Part shown: positions 1-7,600 of the stretch, in pieces
How positions within the stretch are numbered: position 1 is the stretch's first letter
How the letters are laid out: each line of letters begins with the position of its first letter
From: an uncultured Curtobacterium sp.
GTDB lineage: Bacteria; Actinomycetota; Actinomycetes; Actinomycetales; Microbacteriaceae
NCBI GenBank assembly: GCA_913774725.1
Contig: CAJYIG010000400.1
Location: forward strand, 1 to 8,986
Reading direction: 5' to 3'
Length of the DNA stretch: 8,986 nt
The notes under the pieces: model-generated
Told to the model about the DNA's origin: nothing
Database searches by the model: none
The model's input: only the letters and a program-made list of their open reading frames with translations
Made by a program: the position numbers and the translations under genes

Positions 1-443
1 CCGGCAACTTCCCCGACGACACGATGACCGTCGCCGGCGAGCACGTGCCGTTCGAGCAGTTGCTCGGGACCGAGGCCACCCGCGTCGTCGTCATCTCGCC
101 GGGACACGACACCGAGGACTTCCTGCAGGTCGTCGAGCGGATGGGCCTGCACAAGGTCTCGTACTCGGTCGGCTGGACGTCGTGGCTCGACATCGCTCCC
201 GAGGGCGTGACGAAGGCGACCGCGATGGAGCGCGTCCGCGAGTGGCTCGACATCCCTCGCTCCCGCGTCATGGCGGCGGGCGACGGGCGGAACGACATCG
301 ACATGCTGCGGTGGGCGTCGACCTCGGGCCGCGGTGTCGTGATGGGACAGGCCCCGGACGACGTCGTCGACGCGGGCAACGAGCTGACCGGTGGTGTGAC
401 CGACGACGGTCTGGCGGCGGCGCTCGACACGCTGCCGCGGTAG
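1..443 (+). CDS. Cof-type HAD hydrolase, C-terminal part (5' truncated by window)
   Basis: The first complete codon is at position 3 and the reading frame is open to the window edge, so only the C-terminal ~146 residues are present. HAD-superfamily phosphatases remove phosphate from small molecules through an Asp nucleophile; that Asp (motif I) lies outside the window. Two late motifs are visible. The motif III lysine sits in GVTKATAM, the usual 'KG.AL' position of the Cof/IIB group, and motif IV is GDGRNDIDML, where the Asp residues bind Mg2+. The tail (GVVMGQAPDDVVDAGNELTGGVTDDGLAAAL) is the typical Cof ending in which the protein checks an 'is-it-time' cap and then closes with a short helix. 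The substrate cannot be read from the sequence. The gene ends with TAG, followed by a 91-bp gap before the next gene. An internal ATG at 24 is not taken as the start because the family signature clearly extends upstream. Confidence 0.88.
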   Translation, partial: GNFPDDTMTVAGEHVPFEQLLGTEATRVVVISPGHDTEDFLQVVERMGLHKVSYSVGWTSWLDIAPEGVTKATAMERVREWLDIPRSRVMAAGDGRNDIDMLRWASTSGRGVVMGQAPDDVVDAGNELTGGVTDDGLAAALDTLPR

Positions 444-473
444 TCCTCGGCCGCCTGAGGCTCCCGTGTCGTG

Positions 474-489
474 GGCAGCCGGCGCTGCC
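474..489 (+). terminator. Small GC hairpin after the HAD gene, possible terminator
   Basis: GGCAGC (474-479) pairs perfectly with GCTGCC (484-489) around a CGGC tetraloop, 31 nt after the HAD stop codon. There is no T-tract. U-poor hairpins can terminate in actinobacteria, but a 6-bp stem is weak evidence, so this is a candidate only. Confidence 0.35.
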
Positions 490-513
490 ACTTCGAATCC
501 GGCCTGGTCACTC

Positions 514-534
514 GTGTCAATGTAGGCTTGACGC
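514..534 (+). promoter_or_regulatory. -10 box for a leaderless transcript, inside an inverted repeat
   Basis: TAGGCT at 523-528 fits the actinobacterial TANNNT -10 consensus and lies 6 nt before the ATG at 535. Transcription would therefore start on or next to the start codon. No Shine-Dalgarno sequence precedes that ATG, which agrees with a leaderless mRNA. No convincing -35 box is seen. The -10 box is bracketed by GTCAA (516-520) and TTGAC (528-532), an inverted repeat with a 7-nt spacer. A repressor such as the HTH protein encoded directly downstream could bind there; this role is inference. Confidence 0.45.
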
Positions 535-1143
535 ATGCAACCGAATCTCTACGAGCAGGCGTCGAACGTGCATCGTGCCGTCGGCGACATCATCGCCTCG
601 CCCGTCCTCGGGGACGGGCAGGAGCCACTGGACACGGTGGCAGCGGCGAACCGCGTCTGTGAACAGGCGACGGCGCTCTTGGCGGCTTCGGTGGAACGCG
701 CGCGCAACGAGGGTGTCACGTGGCAGCAGATCGGGGACGTCCTCGGGGTCTCTCGGCAGGCGGCGTTCCAGCGGTTCGGCAAGCCGGTCGACCCGGCGAC
801 CGGCGCGACGCTCGACATCGCCGTGCTCCCCGACGCGACCGAGCTGGCAGCATCCGTGATCGACCTGCTCGCGTCCGGACGATGGGACCAGGTGACCAGC
901 CAGTTCGACGATGCGATGCTCCGGACGGTCACCACCGACGGCCTCGCCGCCGCGTGGACGCAGATCATCGCCGCGGCGGGGGCGTTCGAGCGTCGTGGCG
1001 AGACCGAGTCCGTCCGCTCCGCCGGGCTCACCGTCACGAACACGCCCCTCGCGTTCGAGGCGGGCGACTTCACCGCCCGCATCGCGTTCCGCGACGACCG
1101 TCGCATCTCCGGACTGCTCGTGCTCGCCGGGCCGGCGTCGTGA
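535..1143 (+). CDS. HTH protein with C-terminal DUF3887-like domain
   Basis: The protein has 202 residues and is probably a DNA-binding regulator of the operon it begins. Residues 61-82 (VTWQQIGDVLGVSRQAAFQRFG) form a clear helix-turn-helix of the type seen in sigma-like or TrfA-like actinobacterial proteins. Residues about 36-58 form a helical lead-in. Residues about 103-198 have the alternating pattern of a small alpha+beta fold (ATELAASVIDLLASGRWDQVTSQFDD, ending in ISGLLVLAGP), which resembles the DUF3887 domain often paired with this HTH. No membrane segment or catalytic motif is seen. The start is ATG 535, beside a -10 box and without an SD. The stop TGA overlaps the GTG start of the ABC ATPase gene (GTGA, 1140-1143), so the two are translationally coupled. 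It may sense a small ligand through its C-terminal domain; neither ligand nor target is known. Confidence 0.8.
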   Translation: MQPNLYEQASNVHRAVGDIIASPVLGDGQEPLDTVAAANRVCEQATALLAASVERARNEGVTWQQIGDVLGVSRQAAFQRFGKPVDPATGATLDIAVLPDATELAASVIDLLASGRWDQVTSQFDDAMLRTVTTDGLAAAWTQIIAAAGAFERRGETESVRSAGLTVTNTPLAFEAGDFTARIAFRDDRRISGLLVLAGPAS

Positions 1144-1820
1144 CCCCCGTCCCGGGTCGGTCCACAGCTCCCGAGCAGGACACCGTGGTCGACCTGCGCG
1201 ACGTCGAGGTCGTCGTGGACGGCACGACGCTCCTCCCCAGGACGAGCGTCGCGGTCGGGCGCGGGCAGGCGGTGGTCGTCCGGGGGCACAACGGCGCGGG
1301 CAAGTCGACGCTCCTCCGTGTCGTCGCGGGGATGCGGACGCCGACCTCGGGGAGCGCAACCGTCGGTGGTGAGCGGATCTCCAAGCGTGACGCGACGTTC
1401 CGACGTCGTCTCGCTGCGATGATCGGGCTGCCGCCGATGGCACCGGACCTCACGATCCGCGACCACGTCCGCATGGTGTCGGCGACGTGGTTCAGCGATC
1501 CCGACGAAGCGGAGGCAGTCGCTGCCGAAACGATCGGATCGCTCGACCTCCAGCGGCTCGATCGTCGCTTCCCGCATGAGCTGTCGACCGGGCAGCTCCA
1601 GGTCGCGGCGCTCGCCCTCGTGCTCGCTCGACCGTTCGACGTCCTCGTCCTCGACGAGCCGGAACAACGCCTCGACCAGGACCGACTCGCCGGAGTGCGT
1701 GACGTCCTCGCAGGGCGCCGGGATGCTGGAGCGGCGCTCGTCATCGCGACGCACAGTACGACCCTCGCCGACAGCCTGGCCGACCACGTCGTCGACCTCG
1801 ACGCCGACGGGTCGCGATGA
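1140..1820 (+). CDS. ABC transporter ATP-binding protein
   Basis: This 226-residue protein is a single nucleotide-binding domain that hydrolyses ATP at the cytoplasmic face to drive the membrane protein encoded next. Walker A is GHNGAGKST (residues 49-57). The signature is LSTGQ (148-152) instead of LSGGQ. Walker B is VLVLDEP (168-174) with D172 and catalytic E173, and the switch His is H205 in VIATHS. The Q-loop position reads GLPPMAPDLT (96-105), without the usual Gln. The GTG start at 1140 overlaps the stop of the upstream regulator, and the stop TGA overlaps the next ATG (ATGA, 1817-1820). The frame is open further upstream to 720, but that part is a shadow of the regulator gene. The length is short for an importer and fits ABC-2-like export or resistance ATPases. 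The substrate is unknown; the nearby linaridin genes make peptide export or immunity one possibility. Confidence 0.9.
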   Translation: MTPVPGRSTAPEQDTVVDLRDVEVVVDGTTLLPRTSVAVGRGQAVVVRGHNGAGKSTLLRVVAGMRTPTSGSATVGGERISKRDATFRRRLAAMIGLPPMAPDLTIRDHVRMVSATWFSDPDEAEAVAAETIGSLDLQRLDRRFPHELSTGQLQVAALALVLARPFDVLVLDEPEQRLDQDRLAGVRDVLAGRRDAGAALVIATHSTTLADSLADHVVDLDADGSR

Positions 1821-3286
1821 CGAAGCGCGCTGCGGCCGTCTTCGAGATATGGCGCCGTCGCGACGAGCGGACGGTGGGAGACCGCGCGTTCATCTCGTAC
1901 GCGCTGGTGCTCGTCGGGCTCATCGTGGTGGCGCCGGTCGTCCGGGCGACCTGGATCGGTCTCTCGACCCCGCCCGCGTCGGCGACGCTCACATCACCGA
2001 TGGCGCCGTCGGTCGCAGCGTTCCTGCTGGCTGCGTCGTGGTCCACTGCGTTGCTCGTCGGTCGCCGACGCGGCCCGGCCGTCCTGGCACCGATCCTCGT
2101 GCACGTCCTGGCGGACAGCGACGTGCCGCGGATCCGGGCGTTCGGGCGAGTCGTCTCGCTGTCGACGGCATGCGTGGCGTCCTGCTTCGCGGGTGTGGCC
2201 GGCCTGGTCGGCTCAGCGGCGCTGGGGGGCGACGTGGGTGCGATCGGTCCCGTCGTCGACTTCGTCGTCCGCGGTGCCGCGTTCGGCGCGGTCGCGGCGG
2301 TCCTGTGGCTCCTCGGCGAGGCGGTGCCGAGGGCATCGACCTGGGCGGCGGGTGCCGTGCTCCTCCTCGGCGGGGTCGCGCTGGTTTCGCCGGACCGTCC
2401 GCTCTGGGCCTGGGCCTGGGTACGGCCGGAGGTCGTGCCCCTCACGACCCTCGTCACCGTGGTGATCGCCGTGGCCGCGCTCACGAGCGTCCCCGCACTC
2501 CTCGAGCGTGTCGAACCGGCGCGGCTCTCCGAGCAGGCCGCCGCGTGGGACACGGCGATCGCGCACGCTGTCAGCCTCGACCTGAGTTCGGCCTCGGGCA
2601 CGTACCACGCGCTGCCCTCGTGGGGGCGGAGACTCAGTGCCGTCGTGACGTCGAGGTCGGTCGCCGTCCTCGTCGTCGTCCGGGACCTCGTCGCGGTCGT
2701 CCGGACGCCGGAACGGCTCCTGACCGGCGTGCTGCTGTCGGCGGCGGGCGGTGGTCTCCTGGTGGTCGCAGCCGTCTCCGGGCCGTACGGCGCGCTCCTC
2801 GGCGTCGGCGCTGCCGTGCTCGTGTACTCGGGGACGGGGTCGCTGTCGGCCGGTCTCTACCACGCAGCGCGCGTCGCGTCGGACCTTCCGCTCTACGGCG
2901 TCCGTGACGGGGTCCTGCTCCTCTGTCACGGCATCCTGCCCCTCGGCGCGCCCGTGCTCGTGACGGGAGCGGTGGCCGCCGGCACGGGAGTCGCTGCGGG
3001 GGTGCCCGTCGTCGCGCTCGTCCACGCCGTCGTCCTGGCGGTCGCCGCCGCGGTGGCCCGAGGAAGCGACGCGCTGCGAGGACCGACGCCGCTGTTCCTC
3101 CTCACCCCGGCGCCGTCCGCCATGGGCGACCCGATGCCGGTCATCCGGGTGCTGTGGGCAATGGACTCCTTCGTGCTGACCGTCCTCGTCGGCTCGGCCG
3201 TGGGGGTCGGTTCCGCCGTCGGCGCCGGGGCGATCGCGGTGATCCTCCTCGTCGTCCTCGTCGTCCGGTGGGCACGGCGGCCCTGA
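1817..3286 (+). CDS. Polytopic membrane protein, ABC permease-like (possibly DUF6297 family)
   Basis: The protein has 489 residues and is very hydrophobic. I count about 11-12 likely membrane segments, including residues 24-41, 66-82, 115-136, 148-167, 174-190, 206-227, 302-320, 365-385, 388-412, 448-466 and 468-484. A more polar stretch (about 228-280) divides the protein into two halves. It starts at ATG 1817, overlapping the ATPase stop by 4 bp, so it is almost certainly the membrane partner of that ATPase. From memory, the length, composition and position beside a lone ATPase resemble actinobacterial DUF6297 proteins. No substrate-specific motif is visible. Exporter, immunity pump and a non-transport regulatory complex are all possible. 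The next gene lies 376 bp away behind its own promoter, so the operon probably ends here. Confidence 0.75.
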   Translation: MTKRAAAVFEIWRRRDERTVGDRAFISYALVLVGLIVVAPVVRATWIGLSTPPASATLTSPMAPSVAAFLLAASWSTALLVGRRRGPAVLAPILVHVLADSDVPRIRAFGRVVSLSTACVASCFAGVAGLVGSAALGGDVGAIGPVVDFVVRGAAFGAVAAVLWLLGEAVPRASTWAAGAVLLLGGVALVSPDRPLWAWAWVRPEVVPLTTLVTVVIAVAALTSVPALLERVEPARLSEQAAAWDTAIAHAVSLDLSSASGTYHALPSWGRRLSAVVTSRSVAVLVVVRDLVAVVRTPERLLTGVLLSAAGGGLLVVAAVSGPYGALLGVGAAVLVYSGTGSLSAGLYHAARVASDLPLYGVRDGVLLLCHGILPLGAPVLVTGAVAAGTGVAAGVPVVALVHAVVLAVAAAVARGSDALRGPTPLFLLTPAPSAMGDPMPVIRVLWAMDSFVLTVLVGSAVGVGSAVGAGAIAVILLVVLVVRWARRP

Positions 3287-3300
3287 TCCAGCGGCGGTCC

Positions 3301-3329
3301 TGGACACGACCGAGGGGCTTTGCTAGCGT
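3301..3329 (+). promoter_or_regulatory. Sigma-70-type promoter candidate upstream of the linaridin genes
   Basis: TGGACA (3301-3306) differs from TTGACA at one base. After a 17-nt spacer comes TAGCGT (3324-3329), which fits TANNNT. Transcription would start near 3336. It lies 15 bp after the permease stop codon and points towards the precursor gene. A closer promoter within the leader cannot be excluded. Confidence 0.5.
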
Positions 3330-3371
3330 CGTGTCACGTCACCCGATCGAGGGGCATCCGGTGGCGGGGGG

Positions 3372-3385
3372 GTGCTGATCAGCAC
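3372..3385. promoter_or_regulatory. Perfect 14-bp palindrome, operator candidate
   Basis: GTGCTGATCAGCAC is a perfect palindrome. An 11-bp direct repeat, GGGTGCTGATC, covers its left part (3370-3380) and recurs at 3481-3491, where the right half is not conserved. A dimeric regulator binding site just downstream of the putative start of transcription is a reasonable reading; the factor is unknown. Confidence 0.4.
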
Positions 3386-3492
3386 GCCCGAGGGGGAGCT
3401 GTAGCGATGCAGCGCGAACGGGGGAACCATGTCGCAGCGAACGTGATCGCCGATCGCAACCGATGTCTTCGGGAGCGAGCGGGTGCTGATCG

Positions 3493-3594
3493 CTCGGCGC
3501 AACGATGCGCCTGAGTGATGTGTCGCCGCGTGGTGGAGCCATGTGCTCTCGACCGCTCCTGGTCGACCTGTTCGGCGTGCTCGGACGCCGAACA
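3493..3594 (+). other. Three consecutive hairpins in the precursor mRNA leader
   Basis: Hairpin 1 (3493-3515) has GGCGC pairing GCGCC around a 6-nt loop, extended by CTC/GAG across a one-base bulge. Hairpin 2 (3549-3566) has TCGACC/GGTCGA around GCTCCT. Hairpin 3 (3569-3594) has TGTTCGGCG/CGCCGAACA, a perfect 9-bp stem with an 8-nt loop. No known riboswitch class is recognised. Hairpin 3 ends 56 nt before the precursor RBS. It could equally be a DNA operator, since the arms are perfect inverted repeats. Confidence 0.4.
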
Positions 3595-3662
3595 CAGCCG
3601 TCTCCGTGGGGAGGCGAATCCGCTGGTGCAGGGACACCGGCGTTCAGGAAAGGGAGAGTCAC

Positions 3663-3836
3663 ATGCAGTCAGAGATCCTCGAGGTGCAGGCGTTCGCGAA
3701 CTCCGCACTCCGGTCCGTCGACGCTGAGATCGGCGGCGACAGCTCGATCCCGGCGATGACCACGCCGACCGTCGTGTTCACGCCCGCAGCGGCGGAGTAC
3801 GTGGTCGCAGGGAGCACCATCTGCCTCATCTGCTAG
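3663..3836 (+). CDS. Linaridin (type A, cypemycin-like) precursor peptide
   Basis: The gene encodes a 57-residue RiPP precursor. The leader (residues 1-32) carries QAFANSAL (9-16), matching the 'DFANTVL' region I recall from cypemycin precursor CypA, and ends in PAM (30-32). The expected core (33-57) starts TTPT and ends AGSTICLIC. The last eight residues, GSTICLIC, differ from cypemycin's GSTICLVC at one position. By analogy, Thr residues (33, 34, 36, 40, 52) would become dehydrobutyrine. C54 and decarboxylated C57 would close an aminovinyl-cysteine ring, and Ile53 or Ile56 may be epimerised. E45, Y46 and an N-terminal Thr instead of Ala set it apart from cypemycin. The start is ATG 3663 behind AGGGAG (3651-3656), spacing 6 nt; an in-frame GTG at 3543 is rejected because it has no RBS and adds an Arg-rich non-leader sequence. 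The downstream hairpin and the H, L and D genes support this call. Confidence 0.9.
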   Translation: MQSEILEVQAFANSALRSVDAEIGGDSSIPAMTTPTVVFTPAAAEYVVAGSTICLIC

Positions 3837-3847
3837 GCGCAACGAGC

Positions 3848-3876
3848 GCTCCCCGCCCGGTCACCGGGCGGGGAGC
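3848..3876 (+). terminator. Strong hairpin after the precursor gene, attenuator or partial terminator
   Basis: A 13-bp perfect stem (3848-3860 with 3864-3876; arms CTCCCCGCCCGG and CCGGGCGGGGAG plus one outer G-C pair) closes a TCA loop. It begins 11 nt after the precursor stop. No T-run follows. RiPP operons often have such a structure between precursor and enzyme genes, where it stabilises the precursor mRNA and reduces read-through. The same role is inferred here. Confidence 0.65.
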
Positions 3877-3906
3877 CGCTCCGTCGCTCGGTCACCGGGC
3901 GCGGAG
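3858..3906 (+). repeat. Duplicated 18-bp hairpin arm giving a competing structure
   Basis: CGGTCACCGGGCGGGGAG (3858-3875) recurs as CGGTCACCGGGCGCGGAG (3889-3906), 17 of 18 identical, offset by 31 bp. The upstream arm (3849-3860) can pair with the first copy perfectly or with the second at 11 of 12 positions, so two mutually exclusive stems are possible. It may be a simple duplication or a switch. Confidence 0.5.
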
Positions 3907-3951
3907 TCCTCACGACGCCCAGCACCGACGAGACGGAACAGTGCACCTCAG

Positions 3952-5736
3952 ATGACCCTGACCTTCCGGCGCCGACCAGCACGTGCCGGCACGCCGACCC
4001 CCGCCGACCGACGCCAGGGCGCGGTGAACGCGACGATGGCCCCGATCGCGATCGGGCAGATCCTGGCCTCGGTCGAGTCCATGACGATCGGTCGCCTGTA
4101 CCGTCGTGACAACCTGCTCAGGGGGGTCTCAGCCCGCGGAGCACGAGTCGGTACGCTCCGACACCGGCTGCTCACCGTCCTGGATTCCCCGACGACGCCG
4201 CAGATCCTCGCTGCCGTCAACCTCGTGAGTGCGACCGCGTTGCTCCTCGGACGGAACCGGCGTCCGGTCCAGATCGCCTCGAACGTGGTGATCGGCCTCT
4301 GCAACCGGCTCAACGAGATCCGCACGCCGTACGGTCGAGACGGAGCCGACCAGATGACGGCGGTGATCACGCAGTACCGATCGCTGTCTGCTCTGATCCC
4401 CGATGCCGCACGGTCGGATGACCTGTTCCTCCGCGCGGTGAACTACCAAGCCGCGCTGAGCTACTTCGTCTCCGGCATCTCCAAGGCCTTCGGATCGAGC
4501 TGGGTGCAGGGCGACGCCCTCGGGGAGATCGTGCGCACCCAGGCGTACGGTGGCGGTCCCGCAGCCCGGCTCCTCCGCGACCGTCCCCGCCTCGCCCGGC
4601 TGCTCACCTGGAGCACGCCGCTCTGGGAAGCGTCGTTCCCCCTGATCTACCTGCTCCCCGAGCGGTGGGGCCGGCGTGCGCTGTGGGGAGTGAAGGGCTT
4701 CCACGTCGCCGTCGCCGCCGTCATGGAACTCCCACGCTTCGTGTGGGGGTTCACCGGTTCGCACGGAGCCGTCGGGTACGCGTTGTCGGGACACCGGCTT
4801 CCCTCATCGAACGTCGAACGGGTGGTGCTGACGGCAACGGCGGCAGTCGCTCTGACTGCCGGTACGTACGCCGCAGCCCAGCGGGCCCAGGACCGAGACC
4901 GTCGCGCGGGCCTGAAGGGGTCCGTGCTGCTCGAGCTGGAGGACGGCGTCATCGAGTACCGGCACGTGCCACCGACGGATCCGTCCGTCGATGCCGACAC
5001 TGCGCCGGTCGTGATCCTCGAAGCGGGTCTGGGCAATGCCCTCGATGCCTGGGCCTGGGTCGCGGACGGTATGTCCCGCTCGGCTCACGTGCTCGCCTAC
5101 CATCGCCGTGGCTACGGCCGGACCACCTCGAGCGCGGATCCCGGTCGCGCGGTCGAAGCCCTGGTGCGGACGGTGGGCTCGAGCGGTCCCCTCATCGCAG
5201 TGAGCCACTCGATCGGTCTGCTCGTGCTCGCCGGTTACGCCGGTGGTCAGGTGGACGGCAGGGCGTTCGCCGCAATCGTCCTCGTCGACGGCACGGATCC
5301 CGACCTCTTCGACGCAGACCGCGCTGACCGGCGACGCGTCGGCACGTACCTCCAGTCGCAAGCGCACACGATGTTCGCGGCGCTGAGCGGGGTCTACAAC
5401 TTCGCCCCGAACGCAGTCGCCCGTCAGACGAGGTACGAACCCGACCAGCAGAACGGCACCCTGCAGTTCATCTTCGCCCCGCGGAACGTCTACCGCGCGA
5501 CGCGGGAGTACTTCGAGCTTCCCACCGCCGGAGCGATCGACGCGCTGCGGGACGTGCCGGTCCGGTACCTCGTCGCATCCGAGGAGAACGCGGCACAACA
5601 GGAGAGCCTCGCGCGCAAGCTCGCCGCGGAGCATCGGCTGGTACCGACCTCGTCCCACCGGTCCGTGATCGGCTTCCGGGGGAACGCCACGCAGGTCGTC
5701 TCGGTGATCGAGGAGGCGCTCGACCGTGTCCGTTGA
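3952..5736 (+). CDS. LinH-like protein: HTTM-type membrane domain fused to alpha/beta hydrolase
   Basis: The protein has 594 residues. The N-terminal part (about 80-310) is membrane-embedded and resembles the HTTM domain of vitamin K-dependent carboxylase relatives: YFVSGISKAFGSSWVQGDAL (171-190) and KGFHVAVAAVMELPRFVWGF (248-267). The C-terminal part (about 325-594) is an alpha/beta hydrolase fold. Its nucleophile elbow is VSHSIG with S420, and the likely catalytic His is H569 (SSHRS). Strand patterns VVILEAGLG and AIVLVDGTDPDL flank them. Cypemycin-type clusters carry such an H protein. Work on linaridins implicates H together with L in Thr dehydration and residue epimerisation, but which domain does what cannot be read here. 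The start ATG 3952 has no good SD; ATG 4036 (M29) is an alternative. It overlaps the L gene by 11 bp. Confidence 0.85.
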   Translation: MTLTFRRRPARAGTPTPADRRQGAVNATMAPIAIGQILASVESMTIGRLYRRDNLLRGVSARGARVGTLRHRLLTVLDSPTTPQILAAVNLVSATALLLGRNRRPVQIASNVVIGLCNRLNEIRTPYGRDGADQMTAVITQYRSLSALIPDAARSDDLFLRAVNYQAALSYFVSGISKAFGSSWVQGDALGEIVRTQAYGGGPAARLLRDRPRLARLLTWSTPLWEASFPLIYLLPERWGRRALWGVKGFHVAVAAVMELPRFVWGFTGSHGAVGYALSGHRLPSSNVERVVLTATAAVALTAGTYAAAQRAQDRDRRAGLKGSVLLELEDGVIEYRHVPPTDPSVDADTAPVVILEAGLGNALDAWAWVADGMSRSAHVLAYHRRGYGRTTSSADPGRAVEALVRTVGSSGPLIAVSHSIGLLVLAGYAGGQVDGRAFAAIVLVDGTDPDLFDADRADRRRVGTYLQSQAHTMFAALSGVYNFAPNAVARQTRYEPDQQNGTLQFIFAPRNVYRATREYFELPTAGAIDALRDVPVRYLVASEENAAQQESLARKLAAEHRLVPTSSHRSVIGFRGNATQVVSVIEEALDRVR

Positions 5737-6271
5737 CCTCCGCCGCGCCGCCGGCACCGCTGCGGCCGTCGCCATCACCGCTCATCTCGTCGCGACCTCG
5801 CTGTTCAACACGCCGGACTCGTTCAACTTGGACCTGCGGCGCTACGTCGGCGGCTGGACGGTACCGGGCTGGCGGTTCTTCGCTCCGAATCCCGGAGTGC
5901 AGAACGTCCACCTGCTCGTCCGGACCCGTGGCGGGTCGACCCGCACCGCTCCGAGTGACTGGGTCGACGTCACCCCGACGATCCGGCACGGCTTCTGGAA
6001 CGTTCTGATGAACCCGAAGAGCCGCGGGCCGAAGGCGTTGTTCGACGCGATGCAGCAGCTGTCGGTGATGAAGGCGAACTACTCCCAGTTCGATTGGATG
6101 GTGAGCAGCACTGCGTACGAGCTCGTGCGGGATGCAGCATCGGGTCTCGTCTCCGGGGGAGACTCGCAGGAGTTCCAATTCCTCCTGATGAACTACTTCC
6201 CGGCGGCACCTCCCGAGAAACGCATGCAGCCCATCCTCGTGTCGCGATGGGAAGGACGCTTCCATGCCTGA
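5726..6271 (+). CDS. LinL-like membrane-anchored protein of linaridin biosynthesis
   Basis: The protein has 181 residues. One membrane segment lies near the N-terminus (about 8-27). After it comes WTVPGWRFFAPNPG (44-57), a motif resembling small proteins (DUF5819-like) that accompany HTTM membrane domains. The remainder is mixed polar sequence with aromatic clusters (QFDWMVSSTAYELV, QEFQFLLMNYF) and no familiar catalytic signature. In linaridin clusters, the L protein accompanies H and is needed for maturation; a joint membrane complex is likely. The start is GTG 5726 behind AGGAGG (5711-5716), spacing 9 nt. It overlaps the H stop by 11 bp and the D start by 8 bp, so the three genes are translationally linked. 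I do not assign an individual reaction. Confidence 0.75.
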   Translation: MSVDLRRAAGTAAAVAITAHLVATSLFNTPDSFNLDLRRYVGGWTVPGWRFFAPNPGVQNVHLLVRTRGGSTRTAPSDWVDVTPTIRHGFWNVLMNPKSRGPKALFDAMQQLSVMKANYSQFDWMVSSTAYELVRDAASGLVSGGDSQEFQFLLMNYFPAAPPEKRMQPILVSRWEGRFHA

Positions 6272-6842
6272 CACCCTTCCGACGTTCGCTGGAGCCGAGC
6301 TGCACCTGCACGTGAGTGGGGCGGTCGCAGCATCGCTCGTGCCCTGGTGGATCAACTGGTTGCGCTTCACGTCGCCGGAGGTCGTCGTCAACGTCTCCGT
6401 CTCGACGCACGCGACAAGGTTCGTGAGTACCGACGCCGTACGCGCGCTCGCGAACGGAGAAGTCTGGCTCGACGAATGGGAACAGGACGCACTGCCGCAC
6501 TCCTGGAGGGACGGCCGCACGGGGAGGTCCGAGTGCATCATCGTGTTCCCGGCATCGCTCGACACGATCATGCGCCTCGCGCAGGGCCGAGCGGACTCCC
6601 CGGCGCTCATGATGATGCAGTTGACCGAACTGCCGGTCATCATCGCTGACGTGTCCCCGGCGTCTAACGCGGTCATCGACCATTGGCGCACGTTGCTCCT
6701 CCAGCGCCCGAACGTCGTCTTCGCGCCGGCGGTCGACACGCCGCGGGCCGACGACCGGAGCACGACGCAGAGCGGCTTCAACCTCCCGGGTGCGCTCGCT
6801 CTGGCGAATGACCGCCTTGCGCGTCCTGCCGGACGAGCCTGA
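6264..6842 (+). CDS. LinD-like HFCD flavoprotein, peptidyl-cysteine decarboxylase
   Basis: The protein has 192 residues, near the 181 of EpiD. HFCD proteins bind FMN; EpiD and CypD oxidatively decarboxylate the C-terminal Cys of the precursor to an enethiol, the half of AviCys that then reacts with a dehydroalanine. Seen here: a flavin-binding N-terminal beta strand and loop (LHLHVSGAVAA, 13-23), FVS (53-55) and LDEWEQDALPHSW (69-81) with H79 as the likely catalytic His. PASLDT (96-101) replaces PASANT, and SPASNAVID (131-139) sits where EpiD has PxMNxxMW, keeping P and N. The start is ATG 6264 behind GGAAGG (6250-6255), overlapping the L stop by 8 bp. It is the last gene of the cluster and fits the CLIC end of the precursor. 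A phosphopantothenoylcysteine decarboxylase is unlikely given the context and altered motifs. Confidence 0.85.
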   Translation: MPDTLPTFAGAELHLHVSGAVAASLVPWWINWLRFTSPEVVVNVSVSTHATRFVSTDAVRALANGEVWLDEWEQDALPHSWRDGRTGRSECIIVFPASLDTIMRLAQGRADSPALMMMQLTELPVIIADVSPASNAVIDHWRTLLLQRPNVVFAPAVDTPRADDRSTTQSGFNLPGALALANDRLARPAGRA

Positions 6843-6887
6843 CCGTCTCGGCTCTCCTCCCGGTCGTCCGGCCGAGCGCACTGCCGC

Positions 6888-6901
6888 GCATCGAAGGATG
6901 C
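6888..6901 (+). terminator. Weak hairpin after the linaridin operon
   Basis: GCATC (6888-6892) and GATGC (6897-6901) form a 5-bp stem with a GAAG loop, 45 nt after the linD stop. An outer pair, CTCGGC (6847-6852) with GCCGAG (6871-6876), lies just before it. Neither has a T-tract. No stronger terminator is visible before the tRNA gene. Confidence 0.25.
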
Positions 6902-6906
6902 CTCGC

Positions 6907-6932
6907 TTGCCGCTCCGGTGGACCGCTAGACT
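6907..6932 (+). promoter_or_regulatory. Candidate promoter of the tRNA-Ser gene
   Basis: TAGACT (6927-6932) is a good TANNNT -10 box, 40 bp before the tRNA gene. TTGCCG (6907-6912) could be the -35 but the spacer is only 14 nt, so the -35 is doubtful. Confidence 0.4.
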
Positions 6933-6972
6933 GCCCGGGACACGGTCACGTCTCGCCACGTGGTCGTGTCAT

Positions 6973-7057
6973 GGAGGGTTGTCCGAGCGGCCGATGGAGC
7001 CTGTCTTGAAAACAGGTGGGCAGTGATGTCTCGTGGGTTCGAATCCCACACCCTCCG
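6973..7057 (+). tRNA. tRNA-Ser (anticodon UGA)
   Basis: A full class II cloverleaf can be drawn. The acceptor stem GGAGGGT/ACCCTCC is perfect (6973-6979 with 7050-7056) and the discriminator is G7057. The anticodon stem is CCTGT/ACAGG (7000-7004 with 7012-7016) with loop CTTGAAA and anticodon TGA at 7007-7009. A long variable arm lies at about 7017-7032. The T arm is GTGGG/CCCAC with loop TTCGAAT (7033-7049). UGA reads UCA and other UCN codons, and the long variable arm is the serine identity element. The 3' CCA is not encoded (CGC follows), so it must be added enzymatically. The GNAT start codon is 3 nt away. Confidence 0.97.
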
Positions 7058-7060
7058 CGC

Positions 7061-7591
7061 ATGAGCACCGGGACCCGCCTCCGACTGATCGAGCTGTCCG
7101 ATGCAGCCGAGCTCGCCACGATCGTCCGCGCGAGCGCCGATCACTTGCGGCCGTTCGAGCCGACGCGGCCGGACAGCTACTTCACCGAGGCCGGGCAGCG
7201 CGCGACGATCGGCGTCCTGCTCGCTGCCGCGCAGAGGGGCGGCTCGGTGCCCTTCGTGATCGTGGGGGACGACGACGAGTTGCTCGGCCGGATCACCCTG
7301 AGCGGTGTGACCCGTGGTGCCCTGCAGTCGTGTGCGCTCGGGTACTGGATCCGTGCCGACCGGACGCGGCAGGGGCACGCGACCCGTGCGGTCGGGCTCG
7401 CGGTCGACTACGCGTTCCGGGAGCTCGGGCTGCACCGGGTGCAGGCGGAGACCCTGCCGGAGAACACCGCGTCGCAGCGGGCGCTCGAGCGGAACGGCTT
7501 CGAGCGGTACGGCTTCGCGCCGCAGTACATCCGCATCGCGAGTGAGTGGCGCGACCACGTCATGTTCCAGGTGCTCGCCCCCGGCGCCTGA
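7061..7591 (+). CDS. GNAT family N-acetyltransferase (RimJ/RimL type)
   Basis: The protein has 176 residues. It should transfer an acetyl group from acetyl-CoA to an amine, most often a protein N-terminus in the RimJ/RimL branch, though small molecules are also possible. It begins with the family's usual strand TRLRLIELSD (5-14). The acetyl-CoA pyrophosphate loop is RTRQGHATRAV (101-111), matching R/QxxGxA. The C-terminal signature ENTASQRALERNGFERYG (134-151) and HRVQAE (125-130) are typical. ATG 7061 is chosen because family homology starts at residue 5; the open frame extends upstream only through the tRNA. No Shine-Dalgarno is possible, since the tRNA ends at 7057. Expression may come from the tRNA transcript after 3' processing. 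A 67-nt nested hairpin begins 10 nt after the stop. Confidence 0.9.
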   Translation: MSTGTRLRLIELSDAAELATIVRASADHLRPFEPTRPDSYFTEAGQRATIGVLLAAAQRGGSVPFVIVGDDDELLGRITLSGVTRGALQSCALGYWIRADRTRQGHATRAVGLAVDYAFRELGLHRVQAETLPENTASQRALERNGFERYGFAPQYIRIASEWRDHVMFQVLAPGA

Positions 7592-7600
7592 CTCGCTCGC

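What the first reader, a model, noticed from the sequence alone, without database searches (positions are those of the whole stretch)
3663..6842. Compact type A linaridin cluster (A-H-L-D)
A 57-residue precursor ending GSTICLIC, with QAFANSAL in the leader and PAM at the expected cleavage site, is followed by overlapping genes for LinH-like, LinL-like and LinD-like proteins. That set matches the conserved core of cypemycin-type linaridins, known from few producers and mainly Streptomyces. A member in what looks like a Microbacteriaceae-type genome with only four genes would be among the smallest sets. No lanthipeptide cyclase or dehydratase gene (LanB, LanC, LanM, LanKC) is present, as expected for linaridins.
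Basis: partly seen in the sequence, partly recalled or inferred. Interest (0 to 1): 0.88.

Follow-up and report, generated by a model that had tools for sequence, protein, structure and literature searches.

The report
Methyltransferase-free cypemycin-type linaridin gene island
A 6.5-kb gene island in a Curtobacterium genome carries a seven-gene cypemycin-type linaridin cluster with no N-methyltransferase gene, and the peptide is predicted to cap its own N-terminus through a first-position threonine instead.

Summary
In detail: window 3663-6842 encodes a cypemycin-family precursor (NF033752, 78 bits, cut-off 35) and overlapping H, L and D genes; D is a CypD decarboxylase (313.7 bits, cut-off 215). 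It is a type A linaridin cluster. The set is not four genes: an ABC ATPase, a membrane protein and an HTH/DUF3887 protein upstream recur beside the same genes in relatives, and seven genes fill a 6.5-kb island at a site that is empty (gap at most 232 bp) in 57 of 61 usable congeners. Nor is it mainly a Streptomyces affair: relatives sit in five Microbacteriaceae genera and Brevibacterium, and NCBI already names a Curtobacterium precursor 'cypemycin family RiPP'. Worth following: CypM, directly after D in 12 of 12 Streptomyces-type loci, was found in 0 of 10 loci of this clade, and core residue 1 is Thr in 8 of 8 such precursors but Ala or Val in 11 of 11 with CypM. I predict that Thr1 is dehydrated and hydrolyses to a 2-oxobutyryl cap: one evolutionary contrast, chemically untested. 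A hairpin with compensatory changes follows the precursor gene in 19 of 19 loci.

The parts
24..443 (+). HAD-family hydrolase gene (3' part, cut by contig start): left chromosomal flank, not part of the cluster
   Evidence: PF08282 73.7 bits; listed hits in all 65 other genus genomes searched (rows counted)
440..6916 (.). inserted island holding the whole linaridin cluster (ends approximate)
   Evidence: flanks lie -7 to 232 bp apart in 57 of 61 congeners with both flank hits on one contig; seven empty sites read directly
535..1143 (+). HTH-like + DUF3887 protein, 202 aa; predicted cluster regulator (role inferred)
   Evidence: PF13026 61.3 bits; 53% homologue at the same place in L031, L049 and L050, none found in L033, L034, L035, L047 or L048
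1140..1820 (+). ABC transporter ATPase (CypT-like; predicted export/immunity)
   Evidence: PF00005 82.9 bits; about 64% in L031/L049/L050, 52-56% in L032, L033, L034, L035, L047, L048, 40-43% in 11 of 12 Streptomyces-type loci (L036 ends before it)
1817..3286 (+). membrane protein, 489 aa, 12 hydrophobic stretches; predicted partner of the ATPase
   Evidence: homologue beside the ATPase in L031, L033, L034, L035, L047, L048, L049, L050 (L032 ends inside the ATPase) and in 6 Streptomyces loci at E 1.7e-4 to 2.2e-14; not detected in the other Streptomyces-type loci (L042 also found); hydropathy
3663..3836 (+). linaridin precursor A (57 aa)
   Evidence: NF033752 78 bits, E=5.3e-22
3663..3758 (+). 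leader peptide (32 aa, ends PAM); cleavage site inferred from the PxxxTP motif and cypemycin
   Evidence: alignment of 19 precursors; motif in PMC9927463
3759..3833 (+). core peptide TTPTVVFTPAAAEYVVAGSTICLIC (25 aa): Thr1, Cys22/Cys25 for the predicted AviCys ring
   Evidence: alignment; cores of the other 18 loci are 19 or 22 aa, 25 aa also in P0047, P0048, P0049, P0051
3848..3876 (+). hairpin between A and H (13 pairs, 3-nt loop as folded; no T run); predicted attenuator or mRNA-processing/stability element
   Evidence: hairpin soon after the A stop in 19 of 19 loci; compensatory changes in 6 of 14 pairs in 11 Streptomyces-type sequences (4 pairs broken in 1-3 of them) and in 2 of 12 in 3 Curtobacterium-type ones
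3952..5736 (+). LinH/CypH homologue, 594 aa: N-half weakly HTTM/SdpB-like, alpha/beta-hydrolase C-half (S420, D446, H569 conserved)
   Evidence: 50-74% to H of relatives; hydrolase hits in 15 of 17, HTTM in 1 of 17, SdpB in 3 of 17 members; invariant columns in 17; no stretch over the hydropathy threshold, highest 1.59 against 1.6
5726..6271 (+). LinL/CypL homologue, 181 aa (DUF5819)
   Evidence: PF19136 29 bits over cut-off 27.1, matched by 38 of 38 aligned relatives at E up to 1; 58-73% to L of relatives
6264..6842 (+). CypD peptide-cysteine decarboxylase, 192 aa
   Evidence: NF033753 313.7 bits, cut-off 215; PDB 6jdd_A E=1.4e-67
6973..7058 (+). tRNA-Ser(TGA): right chromosomal flank, not part of the cluster
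   Evidence: ARAGORN, Rfam tRNA 52.8 bits

Best explanation
The locus is a type A (cypemycin-family) linaridin cluster of seven genes on a 6.5-kb island in a Curtobacterium genome, has no CypM methyltransferase gene, and is predicted to make a 25-residue AviCys peptide whose first threonine likely becomes a 2-oxobutyryl cap in place of the N,N-dimethyl cap of cypemycin. Shown: the gene set, its order, the precursor, the missing CypM, the Thr1 shared by all CypM-less precursors read, the island boundaries and the hairpin after the precursor gene. Inferred from the family: H and L together would epimerise residues and dehydrate threonines; D would oxidatively decarboxylate the C-terminal Cys25; the enethiol would add to a dehydroalanine made from Cys22 to close the AviCys ring; a host protease would cut after PAM; the ABC ATPase and membrane protein would export the peptide and/or protect the producer. 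Predicted and untested: Thr1 is dehydrated with other threonines, and after leader removal the free N-terminal dehydrobutyrine tautomerises and hydrolyses to 2-oxobutyryl, which caps the chain without an enzyme. The hairpin would let the precursor be made in excess over the enzymes.
For: Family: NF033752 78 bits and NF033753 313.7 bits, both over cut-off; PDB 6jdd CypD 1.4e-67; A-H-L-D collinear with named relatives; trees. Seven-gene unit: ABC and membrane genes recur, DUF3887 in the three closest loci; empty site in 57 of 61 usable congeners, seven read directly. No CypM: found after D in 12 of 12 Streptomyces-type loci (73.9-100% identity; L036 shows only residues 1-75 before its contig ends) and in 0 of 10 loci of this clade (window, L031, L032, L033, L034, L035 with L095, L047, L048, L049, L050; several are cut by contig ends); genome-wide the best hits in G000, G295, G433, G221 and the genomes of L033, L034, L047 are 24-58 bits against 520 for the true gene. 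Thr1 in 8 of 8 readable precursors of these loci and in 8 of 8 homologues from the protein search, an overlapping set whose CypM status was not seen; Ala (10) or Val (1) in 11 of 11 readable precursors with CypM. The chemistry is known in another class: the lanthipeptide rosin A1 has an N-terminal 2-oxobutyryl group, attributed to spontaneous deamination of an N-terminal Dhb (PMC12291118, passages). Hairpin: 19 of 19, covariation. Purifying selection on all seven genes, dN/dS 0.11-0.49.
Against: The Thr1/CypM link is a single contrast: each trait changes once on the H+L+D tree, so the two may differ only by clade history. Cleavage after PAM is inferred. Whether H/L dehydrate the residue next to the cleavage site is unknown, and one review lists cypemycin among RiPPs whose dehydration uses kinases and lyases (PMC10880069, passage), of which none is seen in the window; another text says LinH or LinL (PMC7794033, passage). 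Generic class I methyltransferases exist in these genomes (up to 58 bits, 41% over 134 residues), so methylation in trans is not excluded; G000 is only 73% complete. The membrane assignment of H is weak: HTTM in 1 of 17 members at E=0.0028, and no hydrophobic stretch over the threshold in H or L. The membrane gene was not detected in several Streptomyces loci. No product, expression or activity data exist.
Confidence: 0.55

Rival explanations
1. Ordinary type A linaridin with an unmodified N-terminus: Thr1 is simply kept as a free threonine, and the absence of CypM has no compensating chemistry.
For: Corynaridin, a type B linaridin, lacks a methyltransferase gene and its LC-MS data suggest no N-terminal dimethylation (PMC9927463 section 11). 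Thr1 could be clade history only: one change on the tree.
Against: Thr1 is the same in every CypM-less precursor read while core positions 4-8 vary, and position 1 does vary (Ala or Val) where CypM is present; most corynaridin signals fitted dehydration of all Thr/Ser residues, though forms with fewer were seen.
Confidence: 0.27
2. The N-terminus is methylated (or acetylated) in trans by a host enzyme encoded elsewhere.
For: Class I methyltransferase-like matches to CypM (up to 41% over 134 residues) exist in the genomes; a RimJ-like GNAT lies at 7061-7588, next to the island.
Against: No full-length CypM relative in the seven CypM-less genomes searched. The GNAT region (within window 6917-7596) sits beside the HAD gene in congeners that have the empty site, such as L054, L058, L060, L061, L066, L068, so it belongs to the chromosome.
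Confidence: 0.1
3. Four-gene minimal cluster: A-H-L-D suffices and the upstream transporter genes are unrelated.
For: A 376-bp gap separates the membrane gene from A, and Microbacterium, Herbiconiux and Brevibacterium relatives place the transporter on the other side.
Against: ATPase and membrane protein accompany the set, on either side, in the Micrococcales loci whose contigs reach them, and both lie inside the same island.
Confidence: 0.03
4. A decaying or silent remnant.
For: Rare and patchy: the true H homologue is in 3 of 66 genus genomes; one relative (L049) has H split over two frames, and the Microbacterium rhizomatis genome holds a second precursor with a stop inside.
Against: All seven window genes are open and under purifying selection; a precursor one residue different (P0047) exists elsewhere.
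Confidence: 0.05

Closest known systems
Cypemycin / grisemycin clusters of Streptomyces (type A linaridins; S. griseus L045 as a compared locus, its link to grisemycin is recalled)
   Same: Precursor with QDFAN-like leader, PAMxTP site and GSTICLxC end; H, L, D order; ABC ATPase and membrane protein; hairpin after A.
   Different: Streptomyces loci have CypM directly after D and Ala1 (Val1 in L089); here no CypM, Thr1, a 25-residue core (22 or 19 there), transporter genes upstream instead of downstream, and an extra HTH/DUF3887 gene.
Curtobacterium sp. MCBD17_013 (L031) and G295 (L050; contig length as P0052 of MCBD17_035, 'cypemycin family RiPP') loci
   Same: Same seven genes in the same order, 69-72% identity in A, H, L and D, no CypM, Thr1.
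   Different: Different chromosomal site (G295); 22-residue core without the three-residue insertion.
Brevibacterium 239c linaridin cluster (PMC5719810, passages: homologues of cypH, cypL, cypD, cypT)
   Same: No CypM found, TTP at the core start, same enzymes.
   Different: 19-residue core; transporter genes after D; split over two contigs in the assembly (L035, L095).
Corynaridin (Corynebacterium lactis, PMC9927463)
   Same: Linaridin without methyltransferase; LinL, HTTM and alpha/beta-hydrolase proteins; PxxxTP site; ABC transporter.
   Different: Type B: no decarboxylase, no C-terminal Cys, HTTM and hydrolase as two genes, short-chain oxidoreductase present.

Membership tests
type A (cypemycin-family) linaridin | Precursor of the cypemycin family | tested here: met
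   NF033752 78 bits, cut-off 35
type A (cypemycin-family) linaridin | C-terminal Cys-x-x-Cys for AviCys | tested here: met
   ...STICLIC; STICL[VI]C in 19 of 19 aligned precursors
type A (cypemycin-family) linaridin | PxxxTP cleavage motif | tested here: met
   PAMTTP at residues 30-35; motif described in PMC9927463. Cleavage itself not tested
type A (cypemycin-family) linaridin | LinL homologue (used to identify linaridin clusters, PMC9927463) | tested here: met
   58-73% identity to L of type A loci; DUF5819 over cut-off
type A (cypemycin-family) linaridin | LinH homologue (HTTM-like part + alpha/beta hydrolase in one protein) | tested here: met
   50-74% identity to H of type A loci; hydrolase hits in 15 of 17; the HTTM part is only weakly recognised
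type A (cypemycin-family) linaridin | CypD cysteine decarboxylase | tested here: met
   NF033753 313.7 bits, cut-off 215; PDB 6jdd
type A (cypemycin-family) linaridin | No lanthipeptide dehydratase/cyclase in the cluster | tested here: met
   no such model among the Pfam/NCBIfam hits shown for ten window proteins
type A (cypemycin-family) linaridin | CypM N-methyltransferase beside D (common accessory trait, not defining: corynaridin is filed as a linaridin without one) | tested here: not met
   found in 0 of 10 loci of this clade and in 12 of 12 Streptomyces-type loci
type A (cypemycin-family) linaridin | Product with Dhb residues and C-terminal AviCys | not testable with these tools
   needs mass spectrometry and NMR
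class V lanthipeptide / thioamitide | Kinase-like (PF01636 APH) and PF17914-type partner, or YcaO, beside a LanD (the domain pair from PMC7794033 passages; YcaO recalled) | tested here: not met
   no such model among the hits shown for ten window proteins; APH-type genes do occur at the unrelated loci L051 and L052

The most novel reading that the evidence does not exclude
A whole clade of type A linaridins in Micrococcales has swapped the enzymatic N,N-dimethyl cap for a self-forming one: CypM is gone and an invariant Thr1 is dehydrated and hydrolyses to 2-oxobutyryl on leader removal, so the H/L dehydration machinery itself supplies the N-terminal protection.
Probability: 0.45. Interest if true: 0.55.

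Novelty: new member of a known kind. Interest (0 to 1): 0.42.

Why it matters
A 2023 review says that all characterised linaridins carry an alpha-N-dimethyl group from a locally encoded methyltransferase, and that it is essential for cypemycin activity (PMC10373908, passages; corynaridin, a type B linaridin, is an exception). A type A clade without CypM but with a constant Thr1 makes a sharp, cheap test of how these peptides protect their N-terminus and of how near the cleavage site H and L can dehydrate. The seven-gene module with a clean empty site also delimits what the cluster brings along, including transporter and probable regulator, and the covarying hairpin after the precursor gene is a testable expression element shared by all 19 loci read.

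Tried and rejected
Minimal four-gene cluster: rejected (upstream genes conserved and inside the island). GNAT at 7061-7588 as an N-capping enzyme of the cluster: rejected, its region lies in the same place in congeners with the empty site. Plasmid or viral carriage: no type A D on 72,556 plasmid records (8 records matched, at 30-36% identity), H at most about 34%, no relative of D confirmed in the viral contigs scanned; the phage collection was not searched. Integrase-type ends: no shared stretch of 9 or more bases between 401-560 and 6781-6985, so the route of insertion is open. Canonical sigma-70 promoter and T-run terminator around A (3250-4000): none found. The precursor scan of genome contigs with one sequence found no relative; the D alignment found 18 loci. 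Structure of H, wanted to test for a vitamin-K-carboxylase-like fold: not obtained. The profile of L against solved structures gave no match better than E=0.17; that of H matched only alpha/beta hydrolases, best 3.5e-4. Neither upstream inverted repeat of the window precursor was listed for the nine relatives examined (L045 has a different one), so no operator is claimed.

Rows left out or artefacts: A1 used 30 of 46 D homologues, A4 38 of 56 L homologues; the script returned empty rows for L041 H and L033 ABC (both genes are seen), so L041 entered the tree without H; outgroup CoaBC rows were cut to 230 residues; L060 gave no row; four of 65 congeners were not usable.

Full report
What is there. 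The window is one whole 8986-base contig (C400) of a 2.5-Mb, 73% complete assembly. Its genus-mate G433 is Curtobacterium sp. MCBD17_013: the G433 stretch L090 and record NZ_QKTU01000006.1 (L031) agree in 17,293 of 17,293 bases at the same coordinates. The genus is therefore Curtobacterium, family Microbacteriaceae. The precursor (3663-3836) scores 78 bits with the NCBIfam model linaridin_CypA (cut-off 35), and D (6264-6842) 313.7 bits with the CypD model (cut-off 215). Among solved structures D matches the cypemycin decarboxylase 6jdd at E=1.4e-67. L carries DUF5819 just over its cut-off, matched by 38 of 38 relatives scanned at E up to 1. H has an alpha/beta-hydrolase C-half with conserved Ser420, Asp446 and His569 (reading them as a catalytic triad is mine) and an N-half that in some relatives is recognised weakly as HTTM (1 of 17) or SdpB-like (3 of 17). 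A plain hydropathy scan found 12 stretches in the 489-aa membrane protein but none over the threshold in H or L, so the membrane nature of H and L rests on the literature and on these weak hits.

Relatives. A D search of 5.8 billion proteins gave 46 hits, among them proteins named from Rathayibacter rathayi, Curtobacterium, Microbacterium rhizomatis, Herbiconiux ginsengi, Clavibacter michiganensis, Brevibacterium and many Streptomyces. A scan of genome contigs gave 18 loci. In the genome sets the cluster is rare: 3 of 398 family genomes over the CypD cut-off, 3 of 396 order genomes and 2 of 394 class genomes at E 1e-30 or better, own genome included in each, and 2 of 57 in Brevibacterium. In the genus, 18 of 66 genomes have some H-like match at E 0.001, but only the window's, G433 and G295 have a close one (70% identity, 894-898 bits for the two relatives); the next is 33% and 127 bits. 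Trees: on H+L+D for 20 loci a 100/100 branch separates 11 Streptomyces-type from 9 Micrococcales-type loci, and the window groups with L031, L050 and L049 (100/100). On D alone the window lies in the Micrococcales CypD group (93/99); five of six outgroup rows (three CoaBC, L051, L052) form one group at 85/82, the fourth CoaBC row (L018) is a very long branch, and many inner branches are weak.

The cluster is seven genes, not four. The ABC ATPase (1140-1820) and the membrane protein (1817-3286) have homologues beside A-H-L-D in relatives: upstream of A, behind a DUF3887 gene, in L031, L049 and L050; downstream of D, without DUF3887, in L033, L034, L035, L047 and L048; the ATPase after CypM in 11 of 12 Streptomyces-type loci (L036 ends before it). 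L032's contig ends inside the ATPase. The membrane homologue was detected in 6 Streptomyces loci (7, a smaller search space) and not in the rest, so this partner is less conserved or replaced there. Extent: window 1-439 (HAD gene) and 6917 onward (tRNA-Ser and GNAT) occur throughout the genus. Of 65 congeners with a left-flank hit, 61 have a listed tRNA-side hit on the same contig; 57 of these have a gap of -7 to 232 bp and four have 1105 (G433), 1145 (G295), 1356 (G447) and 17716 bp (G327) (two more had the hits on different contigs and two had no listed row). Seven of eight empty sites that I tried to read directly show 64-94 bp between the position equivalent to window 440 and the tRNA (L060 gave no row); the window has 6533 bp there. 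In G295 the cluster lies about 520 kb from that site. I read this as gain of a 6.5-kb module as a unit; loss from all other congeners is not excluded, and no terminal repeat tells how it moved.

The missing methyltransferase and Thr1. In S. griseus (L045) a 245-aa gene with methyltransferase domains (PF13649) starts inside the end of D; I take it as CypM by position and family (CypM is described as a class I methyltransferase in PMC11447909, passages). It is present after D in 12 of 12 Streptomyces-type loci (L036-L046 and the unnamed L089; L036 shows only its first 75 residues) and was found in 0 of 10 loci of the window's clade, several of them cut by contig ends. A genome-wide search gave 519.7 bits in the S. 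griseus genome and at most 24 (G000), 48 (G295, G433), 58 (G221), 39 (G455), 43 (G456) and 51 (G457) bits elsewhere. The core residue after PAM is Thr in 8 of 8 readable precursors of that clade (L031 and L050 have the same one), Ala in 10 and Val in 1 of the 11 readable Streptomyces-type precursors; L044 gave none. All eight homologues from the precursor search also have TTP. Against over-reading: each trait changes once on the tree, so this is one event, not nineteen.

Mechanism. From statements in papers (passages): cypemycin has dehydrated threonines, N-terminal methylation and a C-terminal AviCys (PMC9927463 section 3); its Dha-19 comes from Cys-19, and linaridin decarboxylases tested in vitro decarboxylate but do not cyclise (PMC10880069). 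Dehydration is thought to be done by LinH or LinL (PMC7794033), although PMC10880069 lists cypemycin with RiPPs that use kinases and lyases; no kinase model is seen in the window. grmL of grisemycin is called indispensable and a potential epimerase (PMC10373908), and a 2023 paper assigns the family-determining activity to two membrane-associated proteins (title only, in a reference list). I map these to the window's H, L and D by homology; none of it was measured here. The 2-oxobutyryl cap is my prediction; the same chemistry is reported for the lanthipeptide rosin A1 (PMC12291118).

In print. No passage that I opened reports such a cap for a linaridin. The search for 'linaridin' with '2-oxobutyryl' listed two papers, of which PMC8153245 was not opened; 'linaridin' with 'Curtobacterium' listed one, whose passages name a Microbacterium azadirachtae linaridin. 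A Herbiconiux paper lists a cypemycin-like cluster in one of 14 strains (PMC10011130, passages), and a Brevibacterium paper lists cypH, cypL, cypD and cypT homologues without naming cypM (PMC5719810, passage). NCBI names P0052 'cypemycin family RiPP [Curtobacterium sp. MCBD17_035]'. The main survey of linaridin clusters (Georgiou 2020) is not held, so the CypM-less clade may already be listed there. Hence 'new member of a known kind'.

The hairpin. Soon after the precursor stop, 19 of 19 loci can form a strong stem (z from -2.5 to -7.5 against dinucleotide shuffles). In 11 Streptomyces-type sequences 6 of 14 pairs show compensatory change, while four outer-loop-side pairs are broken in one to three sequences; in three Curtobacterium-type ones 2 of 12 pairs do. 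No terminator with a run of T was found there, so I propose attenuation or mRNA processing rather than full termination; this is inference.

Limits. Papers were seen as search listings, abstracts, passages or named sections as stated (PMC9927463: abstract and sections 3, 5, 9, 11). The number of threonines dehydrated in cypemycin was not confirmed, so masses are given for both cases.

Noticed in passing
L096 (G455, the genome of L033, Microbacterium rhizomatis; C6): A second CypA-like precursor with one in-frame TGA sits beside ABC and membrane-protein homologues but without H, L or D matches in the 16 kb taken: a likely relict.
   Followed up: partly
L049 (G221), 7640-9371: H is split over two reading frames (query 19-219 and 194-586), an apparent frameshift or assembly error in that relative; its contig length equals that given for a Rathayibacter rathayi L protein (P0056).
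   Followed up: no
L080 (G445, another Curtobacterium genome), 1231-4150: A distant linaridin-like set: H-like protein (639 aa, 33%), DUF5819 L-like protein and a CypM-like stretch right after; a second linaridin type in the genus.
   Followed up: partly
L051 (G238) and L052 (G263): Weak CypD-like flavoproteins (29-35%) in loci with APH-type kinase genes, looking like class V lanthipeptide or related sets in Microbacteriaceae.
   Followed up: partly
window 3372-3385 and 3569-3594: A perfect 14-bp palindrome GTGCTGATCAGCAC and a 10-bp-arm inverted repeat upstream of A; neither was listed for the nine relatives examined; possible operators.
   Followed up: partly
P0047 versus window precursor: A variant of the same precursor differs by one core residue (A49V), natural variation in the product.
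   Followed up: no
precursor cores of all loci: Core length steps by three residues, 19, 22 and 25 (the window has 25), through in-frame length changes just after the TP motif.
   Followed up: no
G327, G401, G439 at the HAD / tRNA-Ser site: Other congeners show large distances between the HAD and tRNA-Ser hits (G327, 17.7 kb) or between the tRNA and the following genes (G439, about 31 kb; G401, about 10 kb): the tRNA-Ser region may be an insertion hotspot.
   Followed up: no
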